From assembly GCA_030695905.1 (NCBI GenBank), contig JAUYOL010000004.1, positions 66,874-105,498 of the forward strand: a DNA stretch of 38,625 nucleotides, given 5' to 3'. Below the pieces are notes generated by a model that did not search any database, had not been told where the DNA came from, and worked only from the letters and a program-made list of their open reading frames with translations. Both the position numbers and the translations under genes were made by a program. Shown one piece after another: positions 14,824 to 30,282 of this stretch. Each line of letters starts with the position of its first letter. Positions within the stretch are counted from its first letter, which is position 1. Origin of the DNA: Candidatus Omnitrophota bacterium (GTDB lineage: Bacteria; Omnitrophota; Gorgyraeia; 2-01-FULL-45-10).

Positions 14824-16424
14824 CAAAAGAGAAGAATGATGTAGATGTAGAAAATAATGAAATGAAGGATGTACCCAAGAGCGAATTTCAAAGGCTCTAC
14901 GAGGAATCTATCACGACTTTCAACGATGGTGAGATAGTAAAAGGCAAGATAGTCAATATCACTTCAAAGGAAGTCATAGTAGATATCGGCTATAAGTCCG
15001 AAGGCGCGATCTCCATATCTGAATTTTCCGATTCGGATGCTTTGAAGATAGGCGATGAAGTTGAAGTGTATCTGGAATCAAAGGAAGACGAAAACGGCAT
15101 GGTTGTGTTGTCGAAACAAAAAGCCGAGCGCGCGGTAGGCTGGGATATGGTTATCTCAAGATACGGCGAAGGCGATGTTGTCGACGGCAAGATATCGAAG
15201 AAGGTAAAAGGCGGCTTCATGGTCGATATCGGGGTTGAGGCGTTTCTACCCGCCAGCCAGGCTGCGCTTAAGTCTTTCGGTAACTTAAATCAGATGGTCG
15301 GCCAGGTATTTCCGTTCAAGATAATCAAGATAAACAAGCCGAGGAAGAATATCGTGGTATCGCGCAAAGACGCCATGCAGCAGCAGAATACCGAAGACAA
15401 GAAGAAGGTCTTCGAGACTCTGCAAAAAGGCTCTACCATAAGCGGTGTTGTGAGAAATATCACTGACTTTGGCGCGTTTGTAGAAATAAATGCCGGGATA
15501 ATAGGGTTACTGCATATTACCGACATGAGCTGGGGCAGGGTCTCTCACCCGAGCGAAGTTCTTGCTATTGGCGATACTATAGAGGTAGTGGTCCTCGATT
15601 TCGACGCGAATACCATGAAGGTGTCGCTCGGATTAAAGCAGAAGACGGCCAATCCGTGGGAAACAGTCGATACTAAATATCCCGCCGGAAGCAAGGTAAA
15701 GGGGACAGTTGTAAACCTGATGCCTTACGGCGCGTTTATCGAGTTGGAAAAGGGCGTCGAGGGACTCCTGCACATATCGGAGTTATCCTGGACGAAGAAA
15801 TACAACCACCCGAACGAACTGCTTGCTATAGGCGACAGGATTGAAGCATCGGTGATAGATACGGATAAGGCGAACCGCAAGATATCCCTTGGATTGAAGC
15901 AACTTGAATCAAATCCGTGGGTGGAAGTCGAAGCGAAATATCCGGTAGGAACGAAGGTAAAAGGAAAGATACGCAATCTCACCGACTATGGAGCATTCGT
16001 TGAACTTGAGGACGGCATAGACGGACTGATCCATGTCTCTGACATATCATGGACCAAGAGAATAGGCCATCCTAAGGATGTATTCAAGAAGGGCGAAAAG
16101 GTAGAGGCGGTTATCTTGGCTGTAGACGCTACCAATAGAAAGATATCGCTCGGATTGAAACAGCTTACACAGGATCCGTGGGATGAGATAGCGGGCAAGT
16201 ACGCGCCGGACGCTCAGATGAATGGCAAGGTAACGAAGGTCGCAAACTTCGGCCTATTCGTCGAAATAGACAAGGATCTCGAGGGCTTGGCTCATATCTC
16301 CGAAATATCGCTGGCCGAAGGCGAGAAACTCGAAGAGAAATACAAAGTCGGCGACGAGATAAAGGTGAAAGTAGTGAAGGTTGACTCGATCCAGCACAAG
16401 ATCGCGTTGAGCTTGAAAGTATAG
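14820..16424 (+). CDS. rpsA: 30S ribosomal protein S1 (six S1 domains)
   Basis: S1 binds mRNA leaders and helps load them on the 30S subunit. The 534 residues hold six S1 domains, at about 32-100, 118-186, 203-272, 289-358, 376-445 and 463-532. Domains 3-6 have the classic 'GAFVE...GLLHISELSW' RNA-binding pattern and share the linker 'SLGLKQ..xxPW'. The first two are divergent, as in other S1 proteins where they anchor to the ribosome. It starts inside the ispH stop (ATGA). After the stop, ATTTGA/TCAAAT can form a short hairpin (16425-16443), but it lacks a good T-run, so the end of this long operon is not sharply marked. Confidence 0.95.
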   Translation: MTKEKNDVDVENNEMKDVPKSEFQRLYEESITTFNDGEIVKGKIVNITSKEVIVDIGYKSEGAISISEFSDSDALKIGDEVEVYLESKEDENGMVVLSKQKAERAVGWDMVISRYGEGDVVDGKISKKVKGGFMVDIGVEAFLPASQAALKSFGNLNQMVGQVFPFKIIKINKPRKNIVVSRKDAMQQQNTEDKKKVFETLQKGSTISGVVRNITDFGAFVEINAGIIGLLHITDMSWGRVSHPSEVLAIGDTIEVVVLDFDANTMKVSLGLKQKTANPWETVDTKYPAGSKVKGTVVNLMPYGAFIELEKGVEGLLHISELSWTKKYNHPNELLAIGDRIEASVIDTDKANRKISLGLKQLESNPWVEVEAKYPVGTKVKGKIRNLTDYGAFVELEDGIDGLIHVSDISWTKRIGHPKDVFKKGEKVEAVILAVDATNRKISLGLKQLTQDPWDEIAGKYAPDAQMNGKVTKVANFGLFVEIDKDLEGLAHISEISLAEGEKLEEKYKVGDEIKVKVVKVDSIQHKIALSLKV

Positions 16425-16448: not shown

Positions 16449-16477
16449 TTGACAAATAGATAAATCAATGGTATACT
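16449..16477 (+). promoter_or_regulatory. Promoter of the giant secreted protein gene
   Basis: TTGACA (16449-16454), a 17-base spacer and TATACT (16472-16477). Transcription should begin near 16484, giving a leader of about 24 bases with a strong Shine-Dalgarno, GAGGAGG (16494-16500), 7 bases before the ATG. The gene is therefore expected to be well expressed unless it is repressed through the overlapping inverted repeat. Confidence 0.88.
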
Positions 16478-16507: not shown

Positions 16508-19500
16508 ATGGTTTTACCAAATAAATCAAAAATCGCGTTTAAGATAATCTCGGCAACTCTTGCCGGGATTTTTTTATTTGAACAGATAGCCTGGGCAGGC
16601 GATCTTATCAATACGGCCCTCGAACAGCAATATCAGGAACAATCCCAGACATTCGCGCCCGAGTATCTGCAGAACCAGCAATCCATTGCCGAAAGCCTTG
16701 TTTCGCAGCAGCAGGCAAGCGAAGACTACATGGCCACGCAAACTCTTCTCCAGGACACATCCTCAACAACTACGCAAGAAGAAGAGCCCATCATCGACCT
16801 GCAGGGCCCGCAAGGCGGCGGCGAACCCGCGCCCTCTGTCAGCACCACAAGCACTACTACTGATACACAGACTCCGGTGCAGGATAATTCGGCCGTAATC
16901 AGCGTAACGACAGTTGATGGCGACAAGGTTAGTTATAAAGACAGTGTAATAGATTGCATAGAGAGGCCGGACGGCACTACACTGCGCAATATTGTGCTTG
17001 ATGGCTCAAATAATCTAACATCAGCCGATATATATCATCCGGATGGCACAATTCAAATTGTAAATAATGGCACAACCTTAAAAATAATAAAGCCGGATGG
17101 CGTTACCTATAATTATAATTCCGAAGAGCTTATAGAATCGGCCGTTTATACCGATGGCAGGGTCGTTAATTACTCCTATTTAAAGGATGGACTGGGAGAT
17201 GTAGTCGAGACTACACTGACAGATCCTGAAAAAACCTCCCGCTATGACCCCAATAACAGGCTAAAAAAAGTCGAATTCAATACAGGTAAAACAATCGGAT
17301 ACGATGGCGGCATCCTATCCTGGGTAACAGATGTTGATGGGAAGACCTATGTTTATAAAAAGGAGACTACGAATATAGATGGCAATATTACGTATGCGGT
17401 CAGCCTGGAGAATATTATAGGCCAGGACGGCAGTATCTATTATTACGTGCCATTCATAACAGGCGACTTTAACCTCGATGGAGCCATCGACGATACCGAT
17501 GTCGATATATTAAGCGCAGGCTATGGAGGCTCGGATAAGACATATTCCGAAGGTGACGCGAACTATGATGGAAGAGTAGACGATACAGATGTAGATATAT
17601 TTAGCGCAAATTACGGTCAGGGTCAGTTCCGCGCGAATGGAGGCAATATCTTCTATGCAAGCGACTTTGATCTCGATGGCGCTGTCGGCGATTCCGATGT
17701 AGATATACTACTTGTGAATTATGGAAGCTCGGATAAGACATATTCGGAAGGCGACGCGAACCGCGATGGAATAGTAGATGATACAGATATAGATTTATTT
17801 ATGGCAAGCTATGGAAATATCCAAACTAATCCGGGTCCTGTATTAGACGATATCTATGCGGATACAATAATATACAATCAGGACGCAAGCGTAAAAGAAA
17901 TCTTAAAAGCGACCGGCGAAACCATCTCTTTCAAAGAAGGGTTGGTCGATAATGTTTTGGCCGGCTCTATCTTAACACAATATAGCTATTCCTTAACAGA
18001 GTCAAATAATATCGAAGGAATATCTCTTATTCGTGACGGTGTAAAGCGTATCTATGATAAATACGGAAATCTTTCAAGGATAACAGGCGGCGGGGTAGCC
18101 CTTAACACGCAGAATGGCGAAGTTACAAAGATAGAAAAAGAAGACGGCACAGTAATAGAGGACGCGGTCTTCGATACAGATAATAATATCGTAAGCGCGA
18201 AAATAACCAAACCAGATGGCGTCCAGGCGGTTTATAGCGATGGCGTTTTGACAGAAGCTCATCAGCCTGATGGCGGCATATTCTATTACGACGTATCGGG
18301 TAACATAGCAAAACTCGTAAATGCTAAAGGCATTACCTATATATATTCAACTATTACAGAAGGCGACCAGATATATACGGTCGCGAACGCCGAAGCGCTT
18401 GATTCTATAACCGATCCCGAAGAAATCGTTTTTCAAAAATATAACTCTGATAAACGGCTTATCGAAGCCCGCCGCAAGAATGGCACGGTCATAAATTATA
18501 ACTATTCAGGCGGCAAGGTCATCGCCAGCGATGGAAAGGTTGTAACAACATATGATGAGAATAATAATATCGAAAAAACCGAAGTGCTGCCTGCTGCCGA
18601 TGACCCTCTTTCCACAATATCAGAATATGAATATGGCCGCATCCGACGCGTATATAAAGGTAATGATTTAATATATAGATATTCATATGAATTTGATGAC
18701 GTGGGCGCGGAGGTCACCAGAATAGAGGATATCGCCACGAAAGATATCAAGCGCTATAAGGATGAGTTTTTAGTGTCAGTAACCGACGCGAAAGATATTG
18801 TAACGGCATATGAATATGACGCCGATAAAAAAATCTCGAAATCCACCGCGACTTACCTTGGCAAAATGATAAATCAATACACCTATACATATGACGGTGA
18901 CAATACCATTATCGAGGACATAGATGGTGTGCGCAGGGCCTACGACAAGGATGACAGACTTACGCGTCTCGAGGAAGATTGGAGGACGTACGACTACACT
19001 TATACGGCGGACGACGCAGGCACGGAAATATCAGCTCAAGCGCTTGTCGCAGTAAGGGATGATACGGGGGTCATTACCAATTATAGGAATGGCAGCATTG
19101 AGTCGGTAGTAAGGCCGGACGGTACAGTGTTAACAAATATTGTAGTTACGAATGGTGTGGCCACAAGCTATGTCGCGCAAAAAGACGGGATAGCATATTA
19201 CATCGAAAATGATCGTGTGGTTAGAGAGATTAAGGCCGATGGCACAGATATCGAATATTATGCCAATAATGGCTGGGCAAAATCGATAACTTCTCCAGAT
19301 GGCGAGGTTACCCTATATGCATATGATTTTGGAACCGAAGACAATGTCGAATATATCCATGCCACAAAAGACGAAATAGCATATAAATTTGACAGCGCCG
19401 GCCTCATAAATCAGGTCGAGTATGCTGACGGGCAGATATTGAATTATATTTACAGCGAAACGGAGCCTCAAACTTTAGAGAAATATGAGCTCGTAAAGAA

Positions 19501-22500
19501 CGCCGCACATTATTTTTATGACACGCAAGACCGTCTTATCAGGGTAGTCGATTCTTCCGGCAGGGAATACGACTATGAATATACGGAGGAAGAGGCCTCC
19601 GTAACATCTATATATACGAGTAGATACTCATCCATTGAAGATATCATAAGTTTCAGCAAAGAAAATCTGCGATTTATCGATAACGGCGTCGATGAATATT
19701 TGGAGATAGAAAAGTACAAAGACCTCGATACGCCTCTTTTGCTGCACCTTAACGATACAAACGGCGCCGCCTCTACTATAGACGACTCTTACGCCGATTA
19801 CGAGGTCGTCTTTAACGGCGACGCAAGGCTCGATGCAACAAGCGCCCGGTTCGGTTCCTCGTCACTATATCTTGACGGCTCAGGCGACTATCTGTCGGTA
19901 TCTGACTCTCCGGACTGGGACTTCGGGACAGGGGACTTTACGCTGGAAACTTTTGTGAACTTCAATTCTCTCGGCACAGCATATTTCTTTGACAGAAATA
20001 ACACCAATGGTTATACCCTTTATTGGCATAACAATAATATTTACTATGCCTCGAACGGCTCTGATAAGGTCAGTCAATATTGGGTGCCGCAGGTTAACAG
20101 ATGGTATCACGTCGCGTTGGTCAGATCCTCAGGCCTTGTCAAGATATTTGTTGATGGAACTCAGCTTGGCAGCGATGTCGCGGACAACACCGATCTGACC
20201 TATGCCAACCCCTTGATTATCGGAGCCAGCGCTAACGGCGGCAATTCTTTTAATGGTTGGATGGATGAGGTAAAAATAGTCAAAGGCAAGGCGCTCTGGA
20301 CATCGAGCTTCACACCGCCCGCATCGGAACACATTGACGCACTCTATAAAACAACCGGCTCCATAACCTCCACACCGATCGAGATCAACGCTACGCAGCT
20401 TGGTTCAATCTCCTGGAATGAATATCTACCGGAAACAACTGATATCACAACTCAGACCAGGACAGGCGATACACCAGATCCCGATGACGGCACATGGAGC
20501 GAGTGGTCGGAGGAGCTTACTGATTCAGCCTCTGCCGCGATTATGTCGCCGGCCGCTAAATTTATCCAGTATAAGGTGAATTTTAAATCACTGGATTCCA
20601 TGGCTACACCGAGGCTGATCCCTGACGCTAACGGCAATTTTGTGCAGATAGATTATGTAGAAAATTTAACGATTCTTAGCGCCGCAACAAACGGCTCAGG
20701 GAGTGATATGGAATTAATAAAGCTCGATAATGTCGATACCCTGCGGCTTGCCGGATATCCGGATCCGGATACGCCTCTTTTGCTGCACCTTAACGATACA
20801 AACGGCGCCGCCTCTAATATAGACGACTCTTACGCCGATCACGAGGTCGTCTTTAACGGCGATGCGCATATAGATTCTTCAGATAGCGATTTCTTCAATT
20901 CAGCCACATTGAACCTCGATGGCAATGATGATTACATGACAATCCCTGACAGCCCAGACTGGGACTTTGGAACCGGAGACTTTACGGTAGAGATGTGGTT
21001 CAAGCAAGATACTATTAAATCCGCGGAGTTTATAACAATAGGCGGTTTTTATTCACAAGGCAAAGGAATTCTTGTATCATCATCGGATTCCGGGAGAGCG
21101 ATAGATGTATATTTGAATGGTGGATACCCCCTTGAAACATATTGGAATATCACCGCTAATACCTGGTATCATTTGGCTGTTACAAGAGCAAGCGGAACGC
21201 TTAGAATATTCTTAAATGGTACGCAGATTGCTTCAGGGTCTGACCCAAGAAGCATAGATGGCGGAACGCTTGGAACAAGGATAGGATATGGGCAATATAA
21301 TTATTTCAACGGCTTCGTAAAGGAAGTCAGAATCTCAAATTCCGCCCGCTACACTTCAAGCTTCACCCCTCAAACCTCGCAATTTGCCTCTGATTCAAAC
21401 ACTAATCTTCTTCTTCATCTTGACCAATCAAACGGTATGGACTCCAGCCCCGTTCCTCATGCCGGTATTACCTTAAACGGCAACGCTGTTATTAGCAAGC
21501 CATACGCTTTCGGTACCGGCAGCATAAGATTCGACGGCAGCGGCGATTATCTGGCTATGCCAGACTCTCCCGATTGGGATTTCGGCACAGGGGACTTTAC
21601 GCTGGAAACTTTTGTGAAGTTCAAGTCGCTTTCTACAGCATACTTCTTCGACAGAAATAACACCAACGGCTACACCTTATATTGGCATAACAATAATATT
21701 TATTATGCGGCCAACGGCCTTAATAAGGCCTCGCAATATTGGGCTCCTGAGACTAATAAATGGTATCACGTAGCTTTGGTCAGATCTTCGGGCCGCATCA
21801 AGATCTTTGTTGATGGAACTCAATTAGGCAGTGATGTCGCGGATACCACTGATCTGACCTATATAAACTCCCTGACTATCGGGGCCAGCGCCAACGGCAG
21901 TAATTCCTTCAACGGCTGGATGGATGAAATACGCGTATCAAAAGGTGTGGCAAGGTGGGGCGGCCCTTTTACGGCGCCAACCGAAGAGTATAATGACCTT
22001 TACAAGACATCCGGTCTTGTTATATCGAGCCCCATACCCATTGTGGCGACCGAGATCTCCGGTATCATAGCGAATATTAACGAGCCTCCCGGCACCGCTG
22101 TTGCGTTCAGGACCAGAACAGGCGCCACCGCCAACTTGGACGATGGCACATGGAGCGGCTGGGTAGATTCGACCAGAACAGCTTCCGGTTGGTCGGTTAA
22201 TTCTCCGGTAAATAAATATCTGCAATATCAGCTTGCGATGAATACGACCGATCCCGGAAGGACTCCGTCCATATATTCAGACGGCGATGCGCTTATAAAA
22301 TTAGGTTATATTTATATAAAGGGTTTTGATGCCACAGCGCCGCCGGAAGATTTAGTATTCAGGGGCTTATTGACTATCGCTCCGCTAGTCATTCCACAGT
22401 CGCTTCAATTATCAAATCTTAATCCCGAATTTATTTACTTTAATCCGCTTGCCGCGGAGATTGCGTCCCGCATCCTTCCCGATTCCACAATAATAGAGAC

Positions 22501-25500
22501 AAAGTCTTTCAAGGAAGATTCGCGCGATGTCACAGTCGAAACCACAAAGGACGGTAAACTTACATATTATCTTGACGGCAAAGTGCAGGCTACGTATCAG
22601 AAATACGACGACAATCATCTGGAAATGTTGGTGGAGTATTCTTATGATGGCGAAGGAAGCCTTGTGTCTGTCAATCTTCCTTCAGCGCGCAACTCGATTG
22701 ATACACAAATAACGCTTGCGCGCCAGCAGATAGCCGAAGAGCGCGCCAATTACCTAAGAACGCTTGCCGAGCAGAAAGGGCTTGCTTATACCCAGATCCG
22801 AGACCAGGTTCAGATTATTCGTGATCAGATAAATACGGAAAGGTCGCGGCTCCAGCCCATGCTCTATCAGGAAGTGCAGCGTCAGAGATGGGTCGGCTGG
22901 TGGATCTTCGGCTGGTATGAGACTTATGCGGAGACAATAGAAGTCTCCGAGGTCAGGGGCGCCCTGAATCAACTGAATGAACAGGAGAGGATTCTTAATG
23001 ATGAAGAGGCTAATGCCTATGCCGAACTGAATAGTGAAGTTGCATCCACTGAAACGGACTTGATTCAGGATGAAGAAGCGGCCTTGGCAGAAATCGCGGC
23101 CCAGGAGGAAGAGTTCCACGTCCAGATTATCGCCGAAGAGTCGACGCCTGTGATATTGGAGTACTATCGGACAATTTTAGGCCGCGATCCGGATGATGCG
23201 GAGACTCAAAGCTGGCTGAATACAGTCGGTTACGATTCAAAAATAAATGTTGCTACTCTAAAGAATGCTCTGTTCAATTCACAGGAAAGGACAGACCAGG
23301 AAGTCTTTGTCGCGGCCCTTAAAGACAGGATTGAAACAGAATTATCCAATTATATCAATAGTGACGAGGCGGGCAAAGAATCGCTTCTTTCGACGCTTGG
23401 CCTTTCCATGGCTAAGGGTGTCCCCTTAAGCCAGAAAGACGTAGATGCAATTCTTTCCCTCCTTGATAAGCAGAATATCCACTTTGGCAGAAGCGCCTTC
23501 GTCGCTTTAGGAACGGTTCTCTCTAATAATGGTATTACCTATGATCTCGAAGATTTAGCCCTTAAGACCATATTGGTTGACATATTCACTGGTTCCCTCA
23601 ATAAGTTTAGTGAAGGGACACTGTTAGAACTATCCATGTATGCCCTCTCAAAGACCGCTTCCTCATATGGAGTTGAATTAAATAATACAAGGTTAAACTA
23701 TGATGAGCTGAAGCAAGTCTTTAATTCAAGCGGGCAGGTAGTTGTCCACCTCGTCAATAACCATTACGTCGTTGTCACAAATATCGCCGCAGACGGCAAG
23801 ATTAGTTATGTGGAGCGTAATAGAGGGCAGGACGGCTATACGTGGACAGTTTCAAGGCAAGATTTTGAGAATTCATGGACAGGTTATGCCATTGTTCAGA
23901 CAACGTCTACAAAAGGCACTATTCCCGATACTGTATTAGCGAAGAAGATTTCTGACGATACGGCTATGCGTGTAAAGGGTAGCTGTCTGCCGTTCTTATT
24001 CCCGCTACTTGGAATGATATTCGGTGCTATCACAGGTGTAGCTACGGCAGTAGTTGGTGCAATAGGCGCTATTGTTGCGGGTATTTCAGCTGTTATAGGG
24101 CCTATTATAGCAGGTATAGGGCAGCTCATTACAGGCATCGCCGGATTTATGACCCAGATAGGCGGTGCCTTATTTAGTGCCGTCCAATTCGTTGGAACAA
24201 GTCTCCTTCCTACTATCGGTGGTTGGATAGGCGGTATTGGTTCGTGGATAGGTGGCATAGGTGCAGCAATTGGTAATGGATTTGGATTAGGCGGGATAAT
24301 ATCAGCAACAGGATTCAACCTTACGGGCCTTGGCCTTGCGCTTGGTAAGACAGTTGTTAGCGTTGCTCTCTCAATGGGTATTTCAAAAGGCCTTGAATTG
24401 CTTGGCGTAAATTCAACAATATCCGGCCTCCTAAGCTCTTTCGTCACTGGCGGTGTTTCGGGCTTATTTAATAACGGATTCTCGGTGTTGTCGTTTATTA
24501 CCGGTGGCATACAAGGGCTTGCCATACAAGGTGTGAACGAGCTCGCCCCGCGGTTAGGTATCGATCCGATGCTAACGAACGTCATAGGCATGACTGCCGG
24601 TGCCTTCATAGGAGCGGTAGGGAACAATATCTCGCCTGAAACTGGGCTGTTCAGCCTTGAAGGATTCAGCACGTCAATAGGCACGCAAATTATGCCCAGC
24701 GTAGCCGGTGAACTGGCTTATTATGGTATTACTAAAGCGGGTGAGTTGCTGGGTGTGGATCCCAGGATCTCCTACGTAAGTGGTTGTCTCATAAGGAGTT
24801 ACATCAATCCTGGAATTGATCCTGAAACAGGAAATCCTAGAACGATGTGGCAAGGAATTACCGACGGGCTATTGCAAGGTGTGACCTCAGGGGGTCTTAA
24901 CTATGCTACTACTGAGCTTGGTCTTGATCCGCTCTTGGCCAACATCGGCTTTTCAGCTATTTCTGGAGCCATCAATGCTGGAATTCAAGCTGCTACAGGC
25001 GGGAGTCAGGATATATTCAAGACTATATTTGAAACATACGAGAAAAATGCTTTAAATTTCTTGGGTTATACTGAACCAGGTACTACCTTGTCTCCTTGGC
25101 AACAAGCGGCGTATATATCCCAGATATTAGACTTCTCAAATATCGTAAAGGATAAAGGGATAGTAAATGCCCTTAATACCTATGGGGCAAGCTTCTTTAA
25201 CGCTGTGGCTGTTAATCAAATAATTCAATCGGGTTTATCAATAGGAGATTACTTTAATAATAAGCTTGATAATAATCAGGGTGTTACGAGAACATTGAAA
25301 GATGGAACGCAGGTTACACAGGTTGCGATAAAAGATGCGCAAGGTAACATTGTCTCTAATGTCTTTTTTGTAAAGAATACTGATGGAAAATGGAATGTTG
25401 TTGGTAAGGAAGATTTAACGCCTAATGGCACATATCTTAGTTGGGGCACCCTTGGGGTAGATACTTACGGTAAGCTTGGTTACACCGATGCTCAACTATA

Positions 25501-26620
25501 TTCAATCTTTAATAGCGATACACAGTTCCAGAGAATACAGGATGGGCAACAAACTTATGCTGAGATTAAGGATTTGCAGGGTAACACGCTGATCATAATC
25601 GAGCCAACAGCGGATGGACACTTTAATGCGTATAACTCGTACGGTGACTATGTGGATGCTAAAATTAGTAGTCCACTGAGTGGAAAATCCTACTCATTTA
25701 GTAATGATATGTTGAAACAATATCAAGAATTTGACATAACGGATAACACATCATTATTCGATGTTGACTTTAGCAAGCTCGCTGCAATAGGGCTAATGTT
25801 TAATAGCTTGTCTATTTCATCAGGTGATATAGCAAAATTTAGTTTTACAGATGCTCAGAAACAGCAAATAACATATGTTATTCTTAATGGTATAGGTAAT
25901 CCGTTCCCTGCAGGAATGGCACCGTCTTATATGAGAGGCTTTGAAACCCAATTAGCGATAGCAGACCCAAGTGGTGCAACCGTTAAGAGTATTGCCATGT
26001 TTCCAAATAGCGGTTCCTTGCCAATAGATGCTAAGATGGATGATACAGTAAATTGGATTGCAAATGCGTATCTTGGCTCTCATTATTTAACAAATGATGT
26101 AATAACTGGCATGCAAGCTCAATTTAATGGTCAAATACCATCAAATATGACAGGCGTTGCTTATAGTGGTAGTGGAGACCCATTAATTCAAGCACTAAAT
26201 GAAAATCCAAACTGGGATATAAAATCGATTGTCTTGGTGGATACCCCGATTGGATTTGAAAGAAAAATTACTAATCCAAATGTAAATAATGTTATAATGA
26301 TTGCCGCAGATGGTGATCTTTTGTCTATTCACGGGCTTATAAGTCAAGGGTTTGAGACAAATCCTCGGCCATTAAATGTTTATAAAATAGTATTAAACGG
26401 GGTTAGTCATACGCAATTTTCTTACGACCCTAATAATACAAATCCAGATCCGGTATCCGTGCAGTCAGCAAGATTCACAGCGGAAATGGCGGTCAGAGGA
26501 AATGATACGGCGTCAATACGGAGTTTTCTTGCAAATCAGGTTGAAATTGGTAGTATTAAGTATGATTCTCAAACAAAATCGTATTTAGTTGACCTAAGTA
26601 AGGTGAAATATGGAAATTAA
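16508..26620 (+). CDS. Giant exported mosaic protein with C-terminal hydrolase-like domain
   Basis: A 3370-residue protein with a signal peptide (KIISATLAGIFLFEQIAWA, about 11-29). Domains in order: YD/Rhs-like beta repeats, many with 'PDG(T/V)' turns (about 110-315 and 440-1065); four dockerin-type calcium repeats (about 319-440; GDFNLDGAIDDTDVDIL and similar); three LamG/concanavalin-like domains (about 1074-1275, 1420-1620, 1630-1820), with a beta-rich 'DDGTWS' module after the first and third; a charged, probably coiled-coil stretch (2058-2211); a DUF4214-like segment (ILEYYRTILGRDPDDAETQSW, from about 2212); a C39-like fold with His2419 (NNHYVVVTNI) but no cysteine; a Gly-rich hydrophobic region (2492-2685); and a C-terminal alpha/beta-hydrolase-like domain (about 3115-3365) with GVAYSGSGDP (Ser3220), IMIAADGD and GVSHTQF as a possible triad. 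The function is unknown. The layout and the coupled downstream gene suggest a toxin-like or adhesive surface protein. No Rhs-core cleavage motif was seen. Confidence 0.85.
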   Translation: MVLPNKSKIAFKIISATLAGIFLFEQIAWAGDLINTALEQQYQEQSQTFAPEYLQNQQSIAESLVSQQQASEDYMATQTLLQDTSSTTTQEEEPIIDLQGPQGGGEPAPSVSTTSTTTDTQTPVQDNSAVISVTTVDGDKVSYKDSVIDCIERPDGTTLRNIVLDGSNNLTSADIYHPDGTIQIVNNGTTLKIIKPDGVTYNYNSEELIESAVYTDGRVVNYSYLKDGLGDVVETTLTDPEKTSRYDPNNRLKKVEFNTGKTIGYDGGILSWVTDVDGKTYVYKKETTNIDGNITYAVSLENIIGQDGSIYYYVPFITGDFNLDGAIDDTDVDILSAGYGGSDKTYSEGDANYDGRVDDTDVDIFSANYGQGQFRANGGNIFYASDFDLDGAVGDSDVDILLVNYGSSDKTYSEGDANRDGIVDDTDIDLFMASYGNIQTNPGPVLDDIYADTIIYNQDASVKEILKATGETISFKEGLVDNVLAGSILTQYSYSLTESNNIEGISLIRDGVKRIYDKYGNLSRITGGGVALNTQNGEVTKIEKEDGTVIEDAVFDTDNNIVSAKITKPDGVQAVYSDGVLTEAHQPDGGIFYYDVSGNIAKLVNAKGITYIYSTITEGDQIYTVANAEALDSITDPEEIVFQKYNSDKRLIEARRKNGTVINYNYSGGKVIASDGKVVTTYDENNNIEKTEVLPAADDPLSTISEYEYGRIRRVYKGNDLIYRYSYEFDDVGAEVTRIEDIATKDIKRYKDEFLVSVTDAKDIVTAYEYDADKKISKSTATYLGKMINQYTYTYDGDNTIIEDIDGVRRAYDKDDRLTRLEEDWRTYDYTYTADDAGTEISAQALVAVRDDTGVITNYRNGSIESVVRPDGTVLTNIVVTNGVATSYVAQKDGIAYYIENDRVVREIKADGTDIEYYANNGWAKSITSPDGEVTLYAYDFGTEDNVEYIHATKDEIAYKFDSAGLINQVEYADGQILNYIYSETEPQTLEKYELVKNAAHYFYDTQDRLIRVVDSSGREYDYEYTEEEASVTSIYTSRYSSIEDIISFSKENLRFIDNGVDEYLEIEKYKDLDTPLLLHLNDTNGAASTIDDSYADYEVVFNGDARLDATSARFGSSSLYLDGSGDYLSVSDSPDWDFGTGDFTLETFVNFNSLGTAYFFDRNNTNGYTLYWHNNNIYYASNGSDKVSQYWVPQVNRWYHVALVRSSGLVKIFVDGTQLGSDVADNTDLTYANPLIIGASANGGNSFNGWMDEVKIVKGKALWTSSFTPPASEHIDALYKTTGSITSTPIEINATQLGSISWNEYLPETTDITTQTRTGDTPDPDDGTWSEWSEELTDSASAAIMSPAAKFIQYKVNFKSLDSMATPRLIPDANGNFVQIDYVENLTILSAATNGSGSDMELIKLDNVDTLRLAGYPDPDTPLLLHLNDTNGAASNIDDSYADHEVVFNGDAHIDSSDSDFFNSATLNLDGNDDYMTIPDSPDWDFGTGDFTVEMWFKQDTIKSAEFITIGGFYSQGKGILVSSSDSGRAIDVYLNGGYPLETYWNITANTWYHLAVTRASGTLRIFLNGTQIASGSDPRSIDGGTLGTRIGYGQYNYFNGFVKEVRISNSARYTSSFTPQTSQFASDSNTNLLLHLDQSNGMDSSPVPHAGITLNGNAVISKPYAFGTGSIRFDGSGDYLAMPDSPDWDFGTGDFTLETFVKFKSLSTAYFFDRNNTNGYTLYWHNNNIYYAANGLNKASQYWAPETNKWYHVALVRSSGRIKIFVDGTQLGSDVADTTDLTYINSLTIGASANGSNSFNGWMDEIRVSKGVARWGGPFTAPTEEYNDLYKTSGLVISSPIPIVATEISGIIANINEPPGTAVAFRTRTGATANLDDGTWSGWVDSTRTASGWSVNSPVNKYLQYQLAMNTTDPGRTPSIYSDGDALIKLGYIYIKGFDATAPPEDLVFRGLLTIAPLVIPQSLQLSNLNPEFIYFNPLAAEIASRILPDSTIIETKSFKEDSRDVTVETTKDGKLTYYLDGKVQATYQKYDDNHLEMLVEYSYDGEGSLVSVNLPSARNSIDTQITLARQQIAEERANYLRTLAEQKGLAYTQIRDQVQIIRDQINTERSRLQPMLYQEVQRQRWVGWWIFGWYETYAETIEVSEVRGALNQLNEQERILNDEEANAYAELNSEVASTETDLIQDEEAALAEIAAQEEEFHVQIIAEESTPVILEYYRTILGRDPDDAETQSWLNTVGYDSKINVATLKNALFNSQERTDQEVFVAALKDRIETELSNYINSDEAGKESLLSTLGLSMAKGVPLSQKDVDAILSLLDKQNIHFGRSAFVALGTVLSNNGITYDLEDLALKTILVDIFTGSLNKFSEGTLLELSMYALSKTASSYGVELNNTRLNYDELKQVFNSSGQVVVHLVNNHYVVVTNIAADGKISYVERNRGQDGYTWTVSRQDFENSWTGYAIVQTTSTKGTIPDTVLAKKISDDTAMRVKGSCLPFLFPLLGMIFGAITGVATAVVGAIGAIVAGISAVIGPIIAGIGQLITGIAGFMTQIGGALFSAVQFVGTSLLPTIGGWIGGIGSWIGGIGAAIGNGFGLGGIISATGFNLTGLGLALGKTVVSVALSMGISKGLELLGVNSTISGLLSSFVTGGVSGLFNNGFSVLSFITGGIQGLAIQGVNELAPRLGIDPMLTNVIGMTAGAFIGAVGNNISPETGLFSLEGFSTSIGTQIMPSVAGELAYYGITKAGELLGVDPRISYVSGCLIRSYINPGIDPETGNPRTMWQGITDGLLQGVTSGGLNYATTELGLDPLLANIGFSAISGAINAGIQAATGGSQDIFKTIFETYEKNALNFLGYTEPGTTLSPWQQAAYISQILDFSNIVKDKGIVNALNTYGASFFNAVAVNQIIQSGLSIGDYFNNKLDNNQGVTRTLKDGTQVTQVAIKDAQGNIVSNVFFVKNTDGKWNVVGKEDLTPNGTYLSWGTLGVDTYGKLGYTDAQLYSIFNSDTQFQRIQDGQQTYAEIKDLQGNTLIIIEPTADGHFNAYNSYGDYVDAKISSPLSGKSYSFSNDMLKQYQEFDITDNTSLFDVDFSKLAAIGLMFNSLSISSGDIAKFSFTDAQKQQITYVILNGIGNPFPAGMAPSYMRGFETQLAIADPSGATVKSIAMFPNSGSLPIDAKMDDTVNWIANAYLGSHYLTNDVITGMQAQFNGQIPSNMTGVAYSGSGDPLIQALNENPNWDIKSIVLVDTPIGFERKITNPNVNNVIMIAADGDLLSIHGLISQGFETNPRPLNVYKIVLNGVSHTQFSYDPNNTNPDPVSVQSARFTAEMAVRGNDTASIRSFLANQVEIGSIKYDSQTKSYLVDLSKVKYGN
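19727..19821 (+). repeat. 95-bp direct repeat, copy 1 (start of LamG domain 1)
   Basis: This stretch matches 20768-20862 at 93 of 95 positions by eye. The offset of 1041 bases is a multiple of three, so the frame is kept. It encodes the TPLLLHLNDTNGAAS segment that opens the LamG-like domain. Flanking sequence diverges much more, which suggests recent gene conversion or duplication within the gene. Confidence 0.9.
20768..20862 (+). repeat. 95-bp direct repeat, copy 2 (start of LamG domain 2)
   Basis: Second copy of the 95-bp repeat, differing at two positions: a C-to-A change in the Ser-Thr/Ser-Asn codons, and a T-to-C change giving Tyr to His. The rest of LamG domain 2 is less similar to domain 1 than domain 3 is, so conversion was local. 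Confidence 0.9.
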
Positions 26621-27227
26621 AAAACATAAAATATTAAAGATTATGGTAATGATTGTCAGTGTTATTGTTATTATAGCAGGCGGTATAACTGTTAAAACAT
26701 ATGTTAATGAAAAAAGAACTCAACAGACTTATATAGTTACAGGATTGCCAGAGAAACAAACGGGTGTTCTCAAAGAACTACAAATAGTTGCAACTGAGCA
26801 TGCGTATATTACCCAAGGATATGAATATCTTAAGACTGGAGATTTTAATAAAGCCAGAGAGCAATTCGAGATTGTATTAAAGCGAAATCAACCTACTGGA
26901 GCATTACCAGAAGCTAGGCGGGGGATTGTTGATGTTTATGAGAAGATACATGATTATGTGACTGCTGCTAAATCATTTGAAAAAATAATAGCTACTTTTA
27001 AAATACCTAAAGGTGACATGTGGCGACTACCTGACGATGAACGATTATCGTATTTGCTGTATGCAGCTAATGGAGATTACGATCTTGCCATAGAACATGC
27101 ACAAAAAGCACTCGAAGCAGATAGCCAACTTCCAAACGCTCCTAAAGGCGGTAGCCCTGATTACATTCAGCGTCTTAATGATTTGAAAGCCGCAAAAGAT
27201 TATATATTAAGTCTCAAGAAGCAGTAG
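26610..27227 (+). CDS. Membrane-anchored TPR protein coupled to the giant gene
   Basis: The 205 residues have a short basic N-terminus, one hydrophobic segment (MVMIVSVIVIIAGGITV, about 12-28) and no obvious cleavage site, so it is probably anchored in the inner membrane with the rest outside the cytoplasm. TPR-like helical repeats follow: GYEYLKTGDFNKAREQFEIV (about 72-91), then a second unit around YEKIHDYVTAAKSFEKI and a third with NGDYDLAIEHAQKALEADS (about 151-169). The ATG lies 11 bases before the end of the giant gene, and its ribosome-binding site AAGGTGA is in the last codons of that gene, so the two are tightly coupled. I do not recognise a named family. From position and topology it may be an immunity protein, chaperone or anchoring partner of the giant protein; this is inference. 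Confidence 0.8.
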   Translation: MEIKKHKILKIMVMIVSVIVIIAGGITVKTYVNEKRTQQTYIVTGLPEKQTGVLKELQIVATEHAYITQGYEYLKTGDFNKAREQFEIVLKRNQPTGALPEARRGIVDVYEKIHDYVTAAKSFEKIIATFKIPKGDMWRLPDDERLSYLLYAANGDYDLAIEHAQKALEADSQLPNAPKGGSPDYIQRLNDLKAAKDYILSLKKQ

Positions 27228-27297: not shown

Positions 27298-27370
27298 AAA
27301 ATAAGTTTTAAGCTCATAAACGGACGCAGTTAAAAAATATATTTTGCAAACGATATAAAAGGCTTTGTAT

Positions 27371-28090
27371 ATGGCACTAAATCTGAAACAATTGTTGAAG
27401 GGAGTAAAGGAATACGTTGAAACTGAGGCTCATACGAAGGTAAAGAGCGTTTCTTACGTTGGACGTTTCCAACTTTTAGGCAAAGAGGATATTGTATTTT
27501 CCGTTGTAATAACCGACAAAAAGGAGCCTGAGTGGTGGGTTGTCGGAGGATCTACCCCAATGAATCTTTACTCAAAGATTCATTTTCATTCTGCTGATGA
27601 AGCTTTTTCCATGCATACTGGATTGATGCTTCGTATGGCGGCACATGATTTTAAACATTCTACTACCGTTCCTGAAGATATTGGATATGATGCGTTTATT
27701 TCTCATGCCTCTGAAGATAAGACAGGTCTAGTTCGGCCCCTAGCAAATGTCCTTAAAAGAATGGGTTATCGTATATGGTATGACGAATTTGAGCTTCAAG
27801 TTGGGGACAGTTTACGGCAATCAATCGACCGAGGACTTGTAAACTCACGATACGGAATAGTTGTTCTGTCGAATGCTTTTTTCGCAAAGAACTGGCCTCA
27901 ATATGAGCTTAACGGATTAACTGCTAAAGAGATGAGGGGCCACAAAGTTATCCTACCTATTTGGCATAAGATCACTAAGGATGATATTCTAAAGTTTAGT
28001 CCTGCCCTTGCCGACAAAGTTGCCATTACTACTAGAGGCCATAGCATCAAAGAAGTTGCCACAAAGCTTGCCAAAGTTTTTGAAAATTAA
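27371..28090 (+). CDS. TIR-domain protein with an unrecognised N-terminal domain
   Basis: The 239 residues split into an N-terminal alpha/beta domain that I do not recognise (about 1-95; RFQLLGKEDIVFSVVITDKK, EWWVVGGSTPMNLY) and a C-terminal TIR domain (about 103-238). The TIR has the opening strand YDAFISHASEDK, MGYRIWYDEFELQVGDSL, the SRYGIVVLSNAFF strand, and NWPQYELNGL with Glu179 in the position of the catalytic glutamate of NAD-cleaving TIRs. An NADase role in abortive-infection-type defence is therefore possible. No sensor or effector partner (for example a Thoeris ThsA) is adjacent. ATG 27371 is chosen over TTG 27365 because AAAAGG lies 8 bases upstream. It sits in a run of mobile and toxin-antitoxin genes, which fits a small defence island. 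Confidence 0.85.
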   Translation: MALNLKQLLKGVKEYVETEAHTKVKSVSYVGRFQLLGKEDIVFSVVITDKKEPEWWVVGGSTPMNLYSKIHFHSADEAFSMHTGLMLRMAAHDFKHSTTVPEDIGYDAFISHASEDKTGLVRPLANVLKRMGYRIWYDEFELQVGDSLRQSIDRGLVNSRYGIVVLSNAFFAKNWPQYELNGLTAKEMRGHKVILPIWHKITKDDILKFSPALADKVAITTRGHSIKEVATKLAKVFEN

Positions 28091-28199
28091 ATGCATTCCT
28101 GCGCAATATTCCACACCATTTCCTAAATAAATCTCAAACAAACTAAACCAAACATAGGTACTATCATGTATTTTTTACAAAAATCTACCGGAGGTGCAT

Positions 28200-28571
28200 A
28201 TGAAAATCCAAGAATTGCTTGAAGATTTTAAAGGGTATCTTGAGGCTAGGGGTTTTTCTCCACGAACTGTAAAAACTTATGTCCTTTATGTAGACATATT
28301 TGACAGATATCTGAAACAAAAAGACATAGAAAATATCGAAAATATTACAAGGAATGTCATCGACCAATACCAGATAGATATATCTACAAAAAACGAATAT
28401 ATGCAGATAGTCCTGTCGACAGCTACCAGGATAGGAAGGCTTATTGGTGTTATGTCATTTTTTCGATTTCTTACTAGGAAAGGTTTAATAGGCGCAGATC
28501 CGACATCCTCTATTGAGCTTCCAAGGTTACCTAAAAGGCCTTCGCCTCAATACCTTACTTATAGTGATTAA
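28200..28571 (+). pseudogene. Truncated tyrosine recombinase (N-terminal core-binding domain only)
   Basis: The 123 residues are the SAM-like N-terminal domain of XerC/D-type integrases: ELLEDFKGYLEARGFSPRTV, then TATRIGRLIGVMSFFRFLTR and GADPTSSIELPRLPKR. In intact relatives the catalytic domain follows right after the PSPQYLTYSD-like sequence. Here a TAA ends the frame at that exact point, where a palindromic repeat (28570-28592) begins. None of the catalytic Arg/His/Tyr residues are present and no remnant of the domain follows. The start codon has a strong GGAGG 5 bases upstream, so a short DNA-binding protein could still be made. ATG 28200 is preferred over GTG 28194 for that reason. Confidence 0.8.
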
Positions 28572-28592
28572 ATAGGGGACAGACACCTATTT
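28570..28592. repeat. Palindromic repeat abutting the recombinase fragment
   Basis: AAATAGG (28570-28576) and CCTATTT (28586-28592) form a perfect 7-bp stem with loop GGACAGACA, followed by TT. A related string, AAATAGGGGAC, recurs at 28719-28729 inside the transposase remnant, again followed by GTGTCAC and AGGGACAC. The GGGAC(A) core also occurs at 28819-28824 before the intact transposase. These look like REP-type repeats linked to the transposases here. The first could also terminate transcription weakly. Confidence 0.6.
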
Positions 28593-28630
28593 TTATTGAC
28601 ATATTAAATTCTTAGTAATAGTATTGCTCC

Positions 28631-28756
28631 ATGCCACGTATAGCACGATTAGTAGTTCCGGATTACCCTCATCATATAACTCAGCGGGGCAATTATCGGC
28701 AGATCGTATTTAATAGGCAAATAGGGGACGTGTCACTTAGGGACACACAACTTTAG
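28631..28756 (+). pseudogene. N-terminal remnant of a REP-associated tyrosine transposase
   Basis: This short frame reads MPRIARLVVPDYPHHITQRG followed by NYRQIVF. It is the characteristic start of the Y1/REP-associated transposase family (IS200-like fold). After about 27 residues the match ends at a copy of the repeat sequence (NRQIGDVSLRDTQL, then TAG). The HxH metal site and the catalytic tyrosine are missing, so it is a dead fragment. It differs from the intact copy at 28851, so it is not a simple duplicate of it. Confidence 0.8.
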
Positions 28757-28793
28757 AAAATAAAAATATTTAAAAATAATCTGCAACAATTTA

Positions 28794-28844
28794 GCCTCTT
28801 TTTACGTCTTATATAGTAGGGACATATAAGGCAAAAAAGGAGGC
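28794..28844 (+). promoter_or_regulatory. REP-like hairpin upstream of the intact transposase
   Basis: GCCTCTTTTT (28794-28803) can pair with AAAAAGGAGGC (28834-28844, one base bulged). Inside this is a perfect 7-bp stem, CTTATAT (28808-28814) with ATATAAG (28824-28830), with loop AGTAGGGAC. The outer 3' arm contains the transposase ribosome-binding site AGGAGG. The loop holds GTAG and GGGAC, resembling the short guide bases next to REP hairpins. The element could both block translation and be a recognition site. Confidence 0.5.
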
Positions 28845-28850
28845 ATTTTT

Positions 28851-29441
28851 ATGCCAAGAATAGGAAGAGTCATATATGATAATGCAGTCTATCATATTCT
28901 TAACAGGGGGCATGATAGGCGAAGACTGTTTCAGGAAGCCGAGGATTTCAAGAGTTTCAAAGACATGATAGCAAGGTATAAGCAAAAATTCCAGTTCGAT
29001 CTTTACCATTATTGTTTTATGTCAAACCATTTCCATTTGTTATTAAAAATAGCAAAAGGCGAAGAGCTTTCTTTTCTTATGAAAGGCATATGCCAGACTT
29101 ATGCCTTTCACTACAAGAGAAAACATCATTTTTCCGGCTATTTATTTCAGAATAGATATAAGAGCATACTTATTGAAAAGGATGAATATCTTATGGAATG
29201 CGGCAGATATATTGAACGTAATCCCGCAAGGGCAGGTATAGTCGATAATCCGGAAAAATACTATTGGTCAAGCTATAATTTCTACGCAAAAACCATACCA
29301 GATGATATAATAACGCCAGACCCTTTATATATTGCTCTTTCTGTTATAGATGCCGAACGAAGGGCAAAATATATTGAATATGTCTCTACTGATCGGCCAT
29401 ATGAACAGCTTCTCGATGAAAAGTTATCCGAGTTAAAATAA
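28851..29441 (+). CDS. REP-associated tyrosine transposase (Y1 family), intact
   Basis: The 196 residues belong to the RAYT branch of the IS200/IS605 TnpA fold. They include MPRIGRVIYDNAVYHILNRG at the start, the HUH-type metal motif His60-x-His62 (SNHFHLLLK), RYKSILIEKDEYLMECGRYI with candidate catalytic Tyr120, and ERNPARAGIV. These enzymes nick single-stranded DNA at REP hairpins and are usually single-copy domesticated genes. All key residues are present, so it may be active. AGGAGG lies 7 bases before the ATG and can be masked by the hairpin upstream. No terminal inverted repeats or target-site duplication are evident, and GTGTCCC occurs just after the gene. Confidence 0.92.
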   Translation: MPRIGRVIYDNAVYHILNRGHDRRRLFQEAEDFKSFKDMIARYKQKFQFDLYHYCFMSNHFHLLLKIAKGEELSFLMKGICQTYAFHYKRKHHFSGYLFQNRYKSILIEKDEYLMECGRYIERNPARAGIVDNPEKYYWSSYNFYAKTIPDDIITPDPLYIALSVIDAERRAKYIEYVSTDRPYEQLLDEKLSELK

Positions 29442-29608: not shown

Positions 29609-29866
29609 ATGCAAGATAGGGGATATATCAGTATTCAAGAGATGGCCCGAATTTTAGGCATAAGCAGGATAGCTGTGTATAAAAAGGTTAAAAAAGGGCA
29701 AATAAAGGCTGTAAGGATAGGGAGAAGCTTCGCAATACCAAAAAAATACGTAGATCATATTCTGGGTAAGGCTCTAGATAAAAAGGATAAAAAAGAAATA
29801 GACAATGCTGTAAAGAAGACGGTCAAAGAGTATGGAGAGGTCTTAAGGCTCCTAGGCAGAGATTGA
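29609..29866 (+). CDS. Excisionase-type HTH protein, probable antitoxin of Doc
   Basis: The 85 residues start with an excisionase/MerR-like helix-turn-helix: YISIQEMARILGISRIAVYK (about 5-24), then the wing KGQIKAVRIGRSFAIPKKYV. A Lys-rich helical tail follows (about 52-85). The tail could bind and block the toxin, as in other antitoxins with an N-terminal DNA-binding domain. GAAGGTGAG precedes the ATG. The TGA stop overlaps the doc ATG by one base. The palindromes upstream suggest autorepression. Doc is classically paired with Phd, and this protein is not Phd by sequence. Confidence 0.82.
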   Translation: MQDRGYISIQEMARILGISRIAVYKKVKKGQIKAVRIGRSFAIPKKYVDHILGKALDKKDKKEIDNAVKKTVKEYGEVLRLLGRD

Positions 29867-30282
29867 TGAAGATTATAACGCTGAAAGAAGTTGAATACAT
29901 GGCGTTCAGGTTAGCCAAAGAGTTGATGTCGTTTAAGGAGCCTATACCCGATTTTTCTACGAGATTTTCAAATAGACTGGAAAGCTGTTTAGCAGCGCCA
30001 TTTCAGAGTTTTTCTGGGAAATCACCTTATAAGGATTTTATATCTAAGGCAAGTGTTCTATTCTATTTGATGATTAAAAATCACCCCTTCCAGAATGGAA
30101 ACAAGAGAATTGCCATGACAACACTGTTCGTTTTTCTTCACATGAATGGTAAGTGGTTGACCGTAGACACCCAGGAGCTATATAATTTTACTATGTGGAT
30201 AGCTCAGAGTCCGCCAAAGGCAAAAAATGAGACAGTTATGGCAACGGAAAAATTTCTGAAATCTAACCTGATCAGTTTATAA
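29866..30282 (+). CDS. doc: Doc-type toxin of the Fic/DOC family
   Basis: The 138 residues resemble Doc, which phosphorylates EF-Tu. The catalytic motif is HPFQNGNKRIA beginning at His73. The Lys in 'NKR' is the Doc form; AMP-transferring Fic proteins have 'GNGR' there. Around it are the usual helices (SKASVLFYLMIKNHPF; AMTTLFVFLHMNG). No Fic inhibition motif (S/T-x-x-x-E/D-G-N) is evident within it, so the upstream HTH protein should supply the antitoxin. ATG 29866 overlaps the stop of the HTH gene; the TTG at 29863 is possible but unneeded. The pair looks intact and carries no sign of decay. Confidence 0.88.
   Translation: MKIITLKEVEYMAFRLAKELMSFKEPIPDFSTRFSNRLESCLAAPFQSFSGKSPYKDFISKASVLFYLMIKNHPFQNGNKRIAMTTLFVFLHMNGKWLTVDTQELYNFTMWIAQSPPKAKNETVMATEKFLKSNLISL

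What the first reader, a model, noticed from the sequence alone, without database searches (positions are those of the whole stretch)
16508..27227. Giant exported mosaic protein plus coupled membrane TPR protein: a polymorphic toxin-immunity-like pair
The protein has an export signal, YD-type repeats, adhesive-type domains (LamG, dockerin), a protease-like fold, a Gly-rich hydrophobic stretch and an enzyme-like C-terminal domain. This is the order seen in polymorphic toxins: delivery body, pre-toxin region, toxic tip. The next gene starts 11 bases before its end, with its ribosome-binding site in the last codons. It encodes a membrane-anchored TPR protein that could face the same compartment as the tip, as an immunity protein would. 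The known Rhs-core cleavage motif is missing, so this would be a different architecture. The toxin role is inference.
Basis: partly seen in the sequence, partly recalled or inferred. Interest (0 to 1): 0.75.

Follow-up and report, generated by a model that had tools for sequence, protein, structure and literature searches.

The report
Swappable toxin on giant Omnitrophota protein
A 3,370-residue exported protein of an uncultured Omnitrophota bacterium, followed by a small membrane protein, turns out to belong to a phylum-wide weapon-and-antidote system in which the protein's last 300 residues and the next gene are swapped together, which offers a testable job for some of this phylum's unexplained giant proteins.

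Summary
In detail: a 3,370-aa Sec-signal protein (16508-26620), overlapped by 11 bp by a membrane TPR gene (26610-27227). Comparison with relatives makes the polymorphic toxin-immunity reading strong. A ~212-aa pre-tip module (25031-25666) recurs in 28 of 384 Omnitrophota genomes, mostly inside 2,000-5,700-aa proteins, and is followed by unrelated tips: two alpha/beta-hydrolase classes, C92-type amidase, RES, all-helical and others. The next gene changes with the tip. Within the GTDB family, 10 of 10 same-tip pairs of loci share a partner family and 0 of 81 different-tip pairs do. This window's tip class, an alpha/beta hydrolase with an intact Ser3220-Asp3270-His3301 triad, is followed by an exported TPR gene in 30 of 30 loci. 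Partners match compartments: hydrolase and amidase tips have exported or membrane partners, RES tips have cytosolic ones. Relatives carry displaced or tandem tip+partner cassettes, tips are AT-rich, and RES and the Pfam 'Pre-toxin TG' domain occur. Unexpectedly, RAYT transposases lie within 2.5 kb downstream of tips about 95 times more often than chance and abut displaced cassettes. Toxicity, substrate and tip-partner binding are untested. New variant of a known kind.

The parts
16449..16477 (+). sigma-70-type promoter TTGACA-17 nt-TATACT driving the giant gene (separate from the upstream rpsA-like gene)
   Evidence: sequence read
16508..26620 (+). giant polymorphic-toxin-like gene, 3370 aa
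16508..16600 (+). export signal with the motif F[KR]hhS..FLxxQhhWA shared by other giants of the family
17447..17827 (+). four dockerin-like Ca-loop motifs (residues 320, 350, 386, 416); no Pfam dockerin hit
19800..22000 (+). three LamG (Laminin_G_3) domains; approximate bounds
   Evidence: best stretch residues 1471-1614; E 2.4e-54
23435..23917 (+). C39-like papain-fold domain conserved across the family, nucleophile position Ser instead of Cys (probably inactive)
23987..24487 (+). Gly-rich hydrophobic stretch (residues about 2494-2660), candidate membrane-insertion/translocation segment (inference)
25031..25666 (+). conserved pre-tip module (residues 2842-3053), the junction after which tips differ
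25667..26617 (+). variable tip: alpha/beta-hydrolase, triad S3220 (26165-26167), D3270 (26315-26317), H3301 (26408-26410)
26610..27227 (+). predicted cognate immunity gene: one N-terminal TM anchor plus TPR repeats, 11-bp overlap with the giant gene
28570..28594 (.). REP-like element AAATAGGGGACAGACACCTATTTTT (same palindrome sits at the RAYT 3' end / displaced-tip junction in L072)
28722..28748 (.). REP-like element, 89% identical over 27 nt to the 83-nt hairpin that borders displaced tips in L017
28851..29441 (+). REP-associated Y1 transposase (RAYT) gene 2.2 kb after the tip stop

Best explanation
The locus is a polymorphic toxin-immunity system of a lineage not described before, found through much of Omnitrophota. 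Shown: a long exported body (YD repeats, LamG and Ca-loop modules, C39-like domain, Gly-rich hydrophobic segment, conserved pre-tip) ends in an exchangeable C-terminal enzyme domain, and the exchangeable next gene encodes a partner specific to that enzyme class and suited to its compartment. Inferred: the Sec-exported protein is displayed at the cell surface; LamG and YD modules bind a neighbouring cell; the hydrophobic/pre-tip part helps the tip enter. Here the tip is a serine hydrolase that probably attacks an ester in the envelope (a lipid is the best guess), and the membrane-anchored TPR protein binds and blocks it in the producer's and its kin's periplasm. Tip+partner cassettes are replaced as a unit by recombination at the pre-tip, with RAYT transposases or REP hairpins marking the junctions.
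For: Pre-tip 36-67% identical between family members whose tips are unrelated. Tip and partner clusters coincide: 45 of 54 homologous-tip pairs have homologous partners (5,000 shuffles: mean 4.1, maximum 16); within the GTDB family 10/10 against 0/81; tip-partner distance correlation r=0.67, Mantel 0/5,000. 30/30 class-A tips followed by an exported TPR partner. Compartment match: 19/19 hydrolase or amidase tips with membrane/exported partners, 4/4 RES tips with soluble partners. RES above Pfam cut-off in two relatives and Pre-toxin TG (PF14449, 40.1 bits) in L059. Displaced tip remnants with cognate partners, and tandem cassettes, in L017, L072, L074, L081, L064, L134. Lower GC in tips than bodies in 20/20 and in partners (means 0.478, 0.394, 0.360). 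Intact catalytic triad and alpha/beta-hydrolase fold.
Against: No toxicity, neutralisation or binding has been measured. The window tip matches no Pfam family and no solved structure by sequence, and its model is only moderate (mean pLDDT 70.6, pTM 0.72). Exceptions: one pre-tip giant (L079) has dapB, not a partner gene, downstream, and one class-B tip (L065) has a two-TM instead of a HEAT partner. How a Sec-exported 3,370-aa protein crosses the outer membrane is unknown, and the C39-like domain seems unable to release the tip. Body size and adhesive modules would also suit predation on other species rather than competition with kin.
Confidence: 0.87

Rival explanations
1. The giant is a surface enzyme/adhesin for predation or feeding, and the small gene is a dedicated chaperone, anchor or regulator of the tip enzyme in the producer's own envelope, not an immunity protein.
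For: LamG and dockerin-like modules suit adhesion. Giant Omnitrophota ORFs have been proposed to be adhesins or predation factors (PMC10066038). A chaperone could also vary with the tip.
Against: RES-type tips on exported giants are paired with proteins that have no signal or TM segment; an anchor or envelope partner for an exported tip should not be confined to the cytosol, whereas an immunity protein against a cytosol-acting toxin should. Partners persist next to displaced tip remnants that no longer belong to any giant. A recognised pre-toxin domain is present in a relative.
Confidence: 0.08
2. It is a polymorphic toxin, but aimed mainly at prey or hosts of other species (Omnitrophota as predators or parasites); the immunity gene only prevents self-damage. 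This is a variant of the best explanation, not exclusive of it.
For: Predatory or host-associated lifestyles are proposed for the phylum (PMC10066038); the body carries large adhesive regions.
Against: Tip polymorphism among close relatives and retention of old immunity genes after tip replacement are usual signs of competition among kin (PMC3482391). Sequence cannot separate the two uses.
Confidence: 0.35
3. The C-terminal diversity is neutral decay or chimerism at the end of a repetitive giant gene, and the neighbouring small gene is coincidental.
For: Giant repetitive genes assemble poorly, and some fragments lie at contig ends.
Against: Tips keep catalytic residues across classes, GTDB families and independent assemblies, and tip-partner linkage is far above shuffled expectation.
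Confidence: 0.02

Closest known systems
Sec/T2SS-dependent RHS/YD polymorphic toxins (class defined in PMC3482391); WapA-like exported YD toxins (from general knowledge)
   Same: Signal peptide, YD/RHS repeats, C-terminal exchangeable toxin, cognate gene immediately downstream, standalone toxin-immunity cassettes; RES and PT-TG occur among relatives
   Different: Much larger body with LamG and dockerin-like modules; no DPxGL autocleavage site; probably inactive C39-like domain, long Gly-rich hydrophobic segment and a pre-tip without Pfam or PDB match; diderm, uncultured phylum
CdiA-CT/CdiI contact-dependent inhibition
   Same: Constant body, AT-rich variable tip plus immunity gene, displaced orphan tip/immunity modules, compartment-matched immunity
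   Different: No TPS/Haemagg_act domain or VENN motif, and no adjacent CdiB; the genome's ShlB-type gene is on another contig
Tox-ABhydrolase-2/-3 with Imm66/Imm69 (PMC3482391) and T6SS Tle lipases with Tli immunity
   Same: Alpha/beta-hydrolase toxin domains, some predicted to act on membrane lipids; immunity proteins for envelope-acting hydrolases sit in the envelope
   Different: The window tip matches no Pfam family; its partner is a membrane-anchored TPR protein; profile-level identity with Tox-ABhydrolase-2/-3 was not tested
Giant ORFs of Omnitrophota (PMC10066038)
   Same: Same phylum; giant exported proteins with laminin_G_3 and dockerin-type modules
   Different: That work proposed adhesion or predation and called the functions poorly understood; it reports no exchangeable tips or immunity genes (no occurrence of 'toxin' in the main text)
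Rhs elements with H-repeat insertion sequences (from general knowledge)
   Same: Toxin-tip loci with an insertion element at the displaced-tip end
   Different: Here the element is a RAYT (Y1/HUH transposase) with REP-type hairpins

Membership tests
Polymorphic toxin system (PMC3482391) | Constant N-terminal delivery body with exchangeable C-terminal domain | tested here: met
   Pre-tip 36-67% identical, tips unrelated, across family members
Polymorphic toxin system (PMC3482391) | Cognate immunity gene directly downstream, specific to the tip | tested here: met
   Linkage and covariation: 10/10 against 0/81 in the family; 30/30 for this tip class. Protection itself not tested
Polymorphic toxin system (PMC3482391) | Standalone or displaced toxin-immunity cassettes near the full-length gene | tested here: met
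   Met in relatives: L017, L072, L074, L081, L064, L134; none seen in the window itself
Polymorphic toxin system (PMC3482391) | Tip is a recognised toxin domain | tested here: inconclusive
   RES and PT-TG in relatives; the window tip is a structurally predicted alpha/beta hydrolase without a family match
Polymorphic toxin system (PMC3482391) | Tip toxic and neutralised by partner | not testable with these tools
   needs the bench
Rhs (T6SS/cage type) | Rhs core ending in DPxGL-type autocleavage motif; PAAR/VgrG delivery | tested here: not met
   No such motif in the window protein; no PAAR or VgrG Pfam hit
CdiA (T5SS) | TPS domain, VENN pre-toxin motif, adjacent CdiB | tested here: not met
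   No Haemagg_act hit, no VENN; ShlB homologue only on another contig
Sec-exported YD/WapA-like toxins | Signal peptide plus YD/RHS repeats plus C-terminal toxin | tested here: met
   Signal by sequence, RHS_repeat above cut-off; toxin activity inferred
C39 processing peptidase | Catalytic Cys | tested here: not met
   Ser at the candidate nucleophile position in the window and nearly all homologues; Cys in only three. The Pfam match does not cover the catalytic Cys, so that position is assigned by motif only

The most novel reading that the evidence does not exclude
Omnitrophota exchange toxin-tip+immunity cassettes with the help of REP-associated Y1 (HUH) transposases: RAYT genes and REP hairpins travel at the end of the cassette and mark each replacement, so a domesticated single-strand transposase drives diversification of a giant contact-toxin family.
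Probability: 0.35. Interest if true: 0.78.

Novelty: new variant of a known kind. Interest (0 to 1): 0.62.

Why it matters
Giant ORFs of Omnitrophota are common but their roles are described as poorly understood, with adhesion or predation proposed (PMC10066038). This gives a subset of them a specific, testable role as exchangeable toxins with paired immunity genes, at tips small enough (about 300 aa) to assay although the bacteria are uncultured. It adds several tip/immunity families that Pfam does not recognise, including an alpha/beta hydrolase with an exported TPR antidote. It also points to a possible link between RAYT transposases, whose host function is debated, and toxin-cassette exchange. 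In the full-text library searched, only one paper holds both 'polymorphic toxin' and 'Omnitrophota', and it concerns other domains; preprints and most subscription journals are not in that library.

Tried and rejected
PDB searches by sequence with the tip, the tip profile and the pre-tip profile found nothing convincing. Pfam, NCBIfam and PADLOC gave no name for the tip. The AlphaFold model of the pre-tip was too poor to use (pLDDT 58.5). Plasmid and viral collections hold no relative of the tip at the sensitivity used. I considered the C39-like domain as the protease that frees the tip and rejected this as the default, since the nucleophile is replaced. I considered CDI/T5SS, T6SS-Rhs and cage-Rhs membership and rejected them on missing markers. 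I considered tyrosine recombinases next to two orphan tips in G009 (L016, L019) as the exchange machinery; the RAYT association is stronger, so this was left open. The first attempt at search for related loci with the diverse tip alignment failed for lack of conserved stretches. DPLGL in L017 and L088 falls in the pre-tip region and was judged a chance variant.

Full report
WHAT IS THERE. The window (G000:C4:66874-105498 of a 1.82-Mb assembly, 97.5% complete) carries a conserved run ending in cmk, ispH/lytB and an rpsA-like gene. After it, with its own TTGACA-17-TATACT promoter and a GAGGAGG ribosome-binding site, comes a 3,370-codon gene (16508-26620), then a 205-codon gene (26610-27227) overlapping it by 11 bp with AAGGTG just before its ATG. 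Refinements: the 'protease-like fold' is a C39-like domain whose likely nucleophile is Ser here and in nearly all relatives (Cys in three), so it is probably inactive; the dockerin-like repeats are four Ca-loop motifs without a Pfam hit; the tip is an alpha/beta hydrolase.

THE TIP. Aligned with its closest relatives it keeps Ser3220 (YSGSGDP), Asp3270 and His3301. An AlphaFold model from seven sequences (mean pLDDT 70.6, pTM 0.72; the core mostly 62-93, the first 65 residues below 50) matches alpha/beta hydrolases in the PDB, the best being cutinase/PETase/PAF-acetylhydrolase-like esterases and AroC (Foldseek probability 1.00, E about 1e-5 to 1e-4; TM-scores only 0.3-0.55). So a serine esterase/lipase-type fold is well supported; the substrate is a guess.

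CONSTANT BODY, CHANGING TIP. A search with the last 371 residues found full-length tip relatives in only some genomes, while others matched only the first 50-110 residues. Fetching those loci showed giants with the same ~212-aa pre-tip and quite different ends. A profile of the pre-tip hit 10 of 27 genomes of the order and 28 of 384 across the phylum, including genomes outside the window's class. Within the family, pre-tip identity over its last 110 residues is 36-67%, while tips of different classes align no better than chance (alignment scores 7-65, against 141-682 within a class). Tip classes seen: A, alpha/beta hydrolase GxSG (the window); B, a second alpha/beta hydrolase with HSAG/WSAG; C, apparently all-helical; D, permuted papain-like amidase (Peptidase_C92, 35.4 bits); R, RES (35.5 and 23.5 bits, above cut-off); plus several unnamed ones.

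THE PARTNER CHANGES WITH THE TIP. Clustering 36 tip/partner pairs independently gave the same groups: nine class-A tips had exactly the nine TPR partners; four of five class-B tips had TM-HEAT partners; two C tips had the same small multi-TM partner; two related tips (L085, L086) shared a soluble partner. Of 54 pairs of loci with homologous tips, 45 have homologous partners (shuffled mean 4.1, maximum 16 in 5,000); within the GTDB family, 10 of 10 same-tip and 0 of 81 different-tip pairs. These count pairs of loci, not independent events. Among 11 class-A pairs, tip and partner distances correlate (r=0.67, Mantel 0/5,000), which shared descent alone could also produce. Extending class A to distant relatives, every tip with DNA after it, 30 of 30, is followed by a gene matching the TPR-partner profile, and all 30 have an N-terminal signal or anchor: some TM anchors, at least one lipobox (L019), some apparently cleavable signals. 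A 31st, on a contig labelled Altiarchaeota (L138), shows the same arrangement.

COMPARTMENT LOGIC. Hydrolase and amidase tips (19 of 19 in the pre-tip set) have exported or membrane partners; RES tips (4 of 4), whose known substrate NAD is cytosolic (general knowledge), have partners with no signal or TM segment (Fisher p 1e-4, not corrected for relatedness). A cytosolic partner for the end of an exported protein makes sense if that end returns into a kin cell's cytosol, which is what immunity proteins guard against. This argues against a chaperone or anchor role.

HISTORY OF SWAPS. In L017 the giant ends in a class-C tip with its multi-TM partner, followed by the last ~70 residues of a class-B tip with its HEAT partner and then the end of a class-A tip with its TPR partner. 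L074, L081, L072 and L064 carry tandem tip+partner cassettes, and L134 a 50-aa remnant with its TPR gene. Tips are AT-richer than bodies in 20 of 20 loci, partners still more so on average (mean GC 0.478, 0.394, 0.360); in the window the drop, 0.453 to 0.366, begins just before the pre-tip. Pfam's Pre-toxin TG domain (PF14449) occurs in L059 at 40.1 bits (cut-off 23.5) and just under cut-off in L074. These are the marks by which polymorphic toxins were defined (PMC3482391).

RAYT/REP LINK. In 14 genomes, 11 of 47 Y1_Tnp (RAYT) genes lie within 2.5 kb downstream of a tip stop, against 0.115 expected; seven genomes contribute. Four of these genomes had drawn my attention to RAYTs first; the remaining ten still give 6, where a proportional share of the expectation is under 0.1. 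In the four cases where a RAYT precedes a displaced tip, its end is -8, 0, 36 and 104 bp from the tip ORF. In L017 two 83-nt, 99%-identical hairpins (-42.7 kcal/mol) end exactly where the displaced tips resume. The window has two REP-like pieces, a RAYT 5' fragment and a full RAYT about 2 kb after the tip. Mobile elements could simply accumulate in spare DNA, so causation is not shown.

MECHANISM. Sec export is supported by the signal, which shares a motif, F[KR]hhS..FLxxQhhWA, with other giants of the family (weaker matches occur widely in these genomes, many in very long ORFs). Passage through the outer membrane is unexplained; secretins exist in the genome and a ShlB-type protein sits on another contig, but neither is linked to this locus. 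Adhesion through LamG/YD modules, insertion through the Gly-rich hydrophobic segment and inhibition of the tip by TPR binding are inferences.

VERDICT. Toxin-immunity architecture: strongly supported by comparative evidence. Actual toxicity, lipid target and contact: open. Known kind (polymorphic toxins), new variant in body, tips, antidotes and phylum.

Noticed in passing
window 28570-29441; L072:4567-5270; L074; L081; L017:14634-14716 and 16067-16149: RAYT (Y1/HUH) transposases and REP-type hairpins lie next to toxin cassettes far more often than chance (11 of 47 within 2.5 kb downstream of a tip, 0.115 expected) and abut displaced tips.
   Followed up: partly
window 27365-28090: TIR-domain gene directly after the pair, matching PADLOC PDC-S66 (E 5.5e-71) and ThsB profiles; followed by an integrase fragment (28194-28571) and an HTH/Doc-like toxin-antitoxin pair (29609-30282): a small defence/mobile island between the pair and tyrS/rRNA.
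   Followed up: partly
window 16508-16600 and giants of G008, G010, G018, G165: Shared signal-peptide motif F[KR]hhS..FLxxQhhWA; profile matches occur in all 26 genomes of the family, many in ORFs over 2,000 aa, hinting at a dedicated export class for giant proteins.
   Followed up: partly
G009 (L016, L019, L062, L067, L071, L076): One genome with at least six different tips, two on short ORFs right after tyrosine-recombinase genes rather than on giants.
   Followed up: no
L138 (JAHIYG010000031.1): Contig labelled Candidatus Altiarchaeota carries a pre-tip + class-A tip + TPR partner; most likely a misbinned Omnitrophota contig.
   Followed up: no
L061:1499-2539, L063:3560-4483, L078:5343-6446: Three loci with tips not all clearly related share a membrane/lipoprotein WD40-like (PD40) propeller partner, a possible broader-range antidote.
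   Followed up: no
L079:7764-9595: A pre-tip giant whose next gene is dapB, the only one of 36 without a plausible partner.
   Followed up: no
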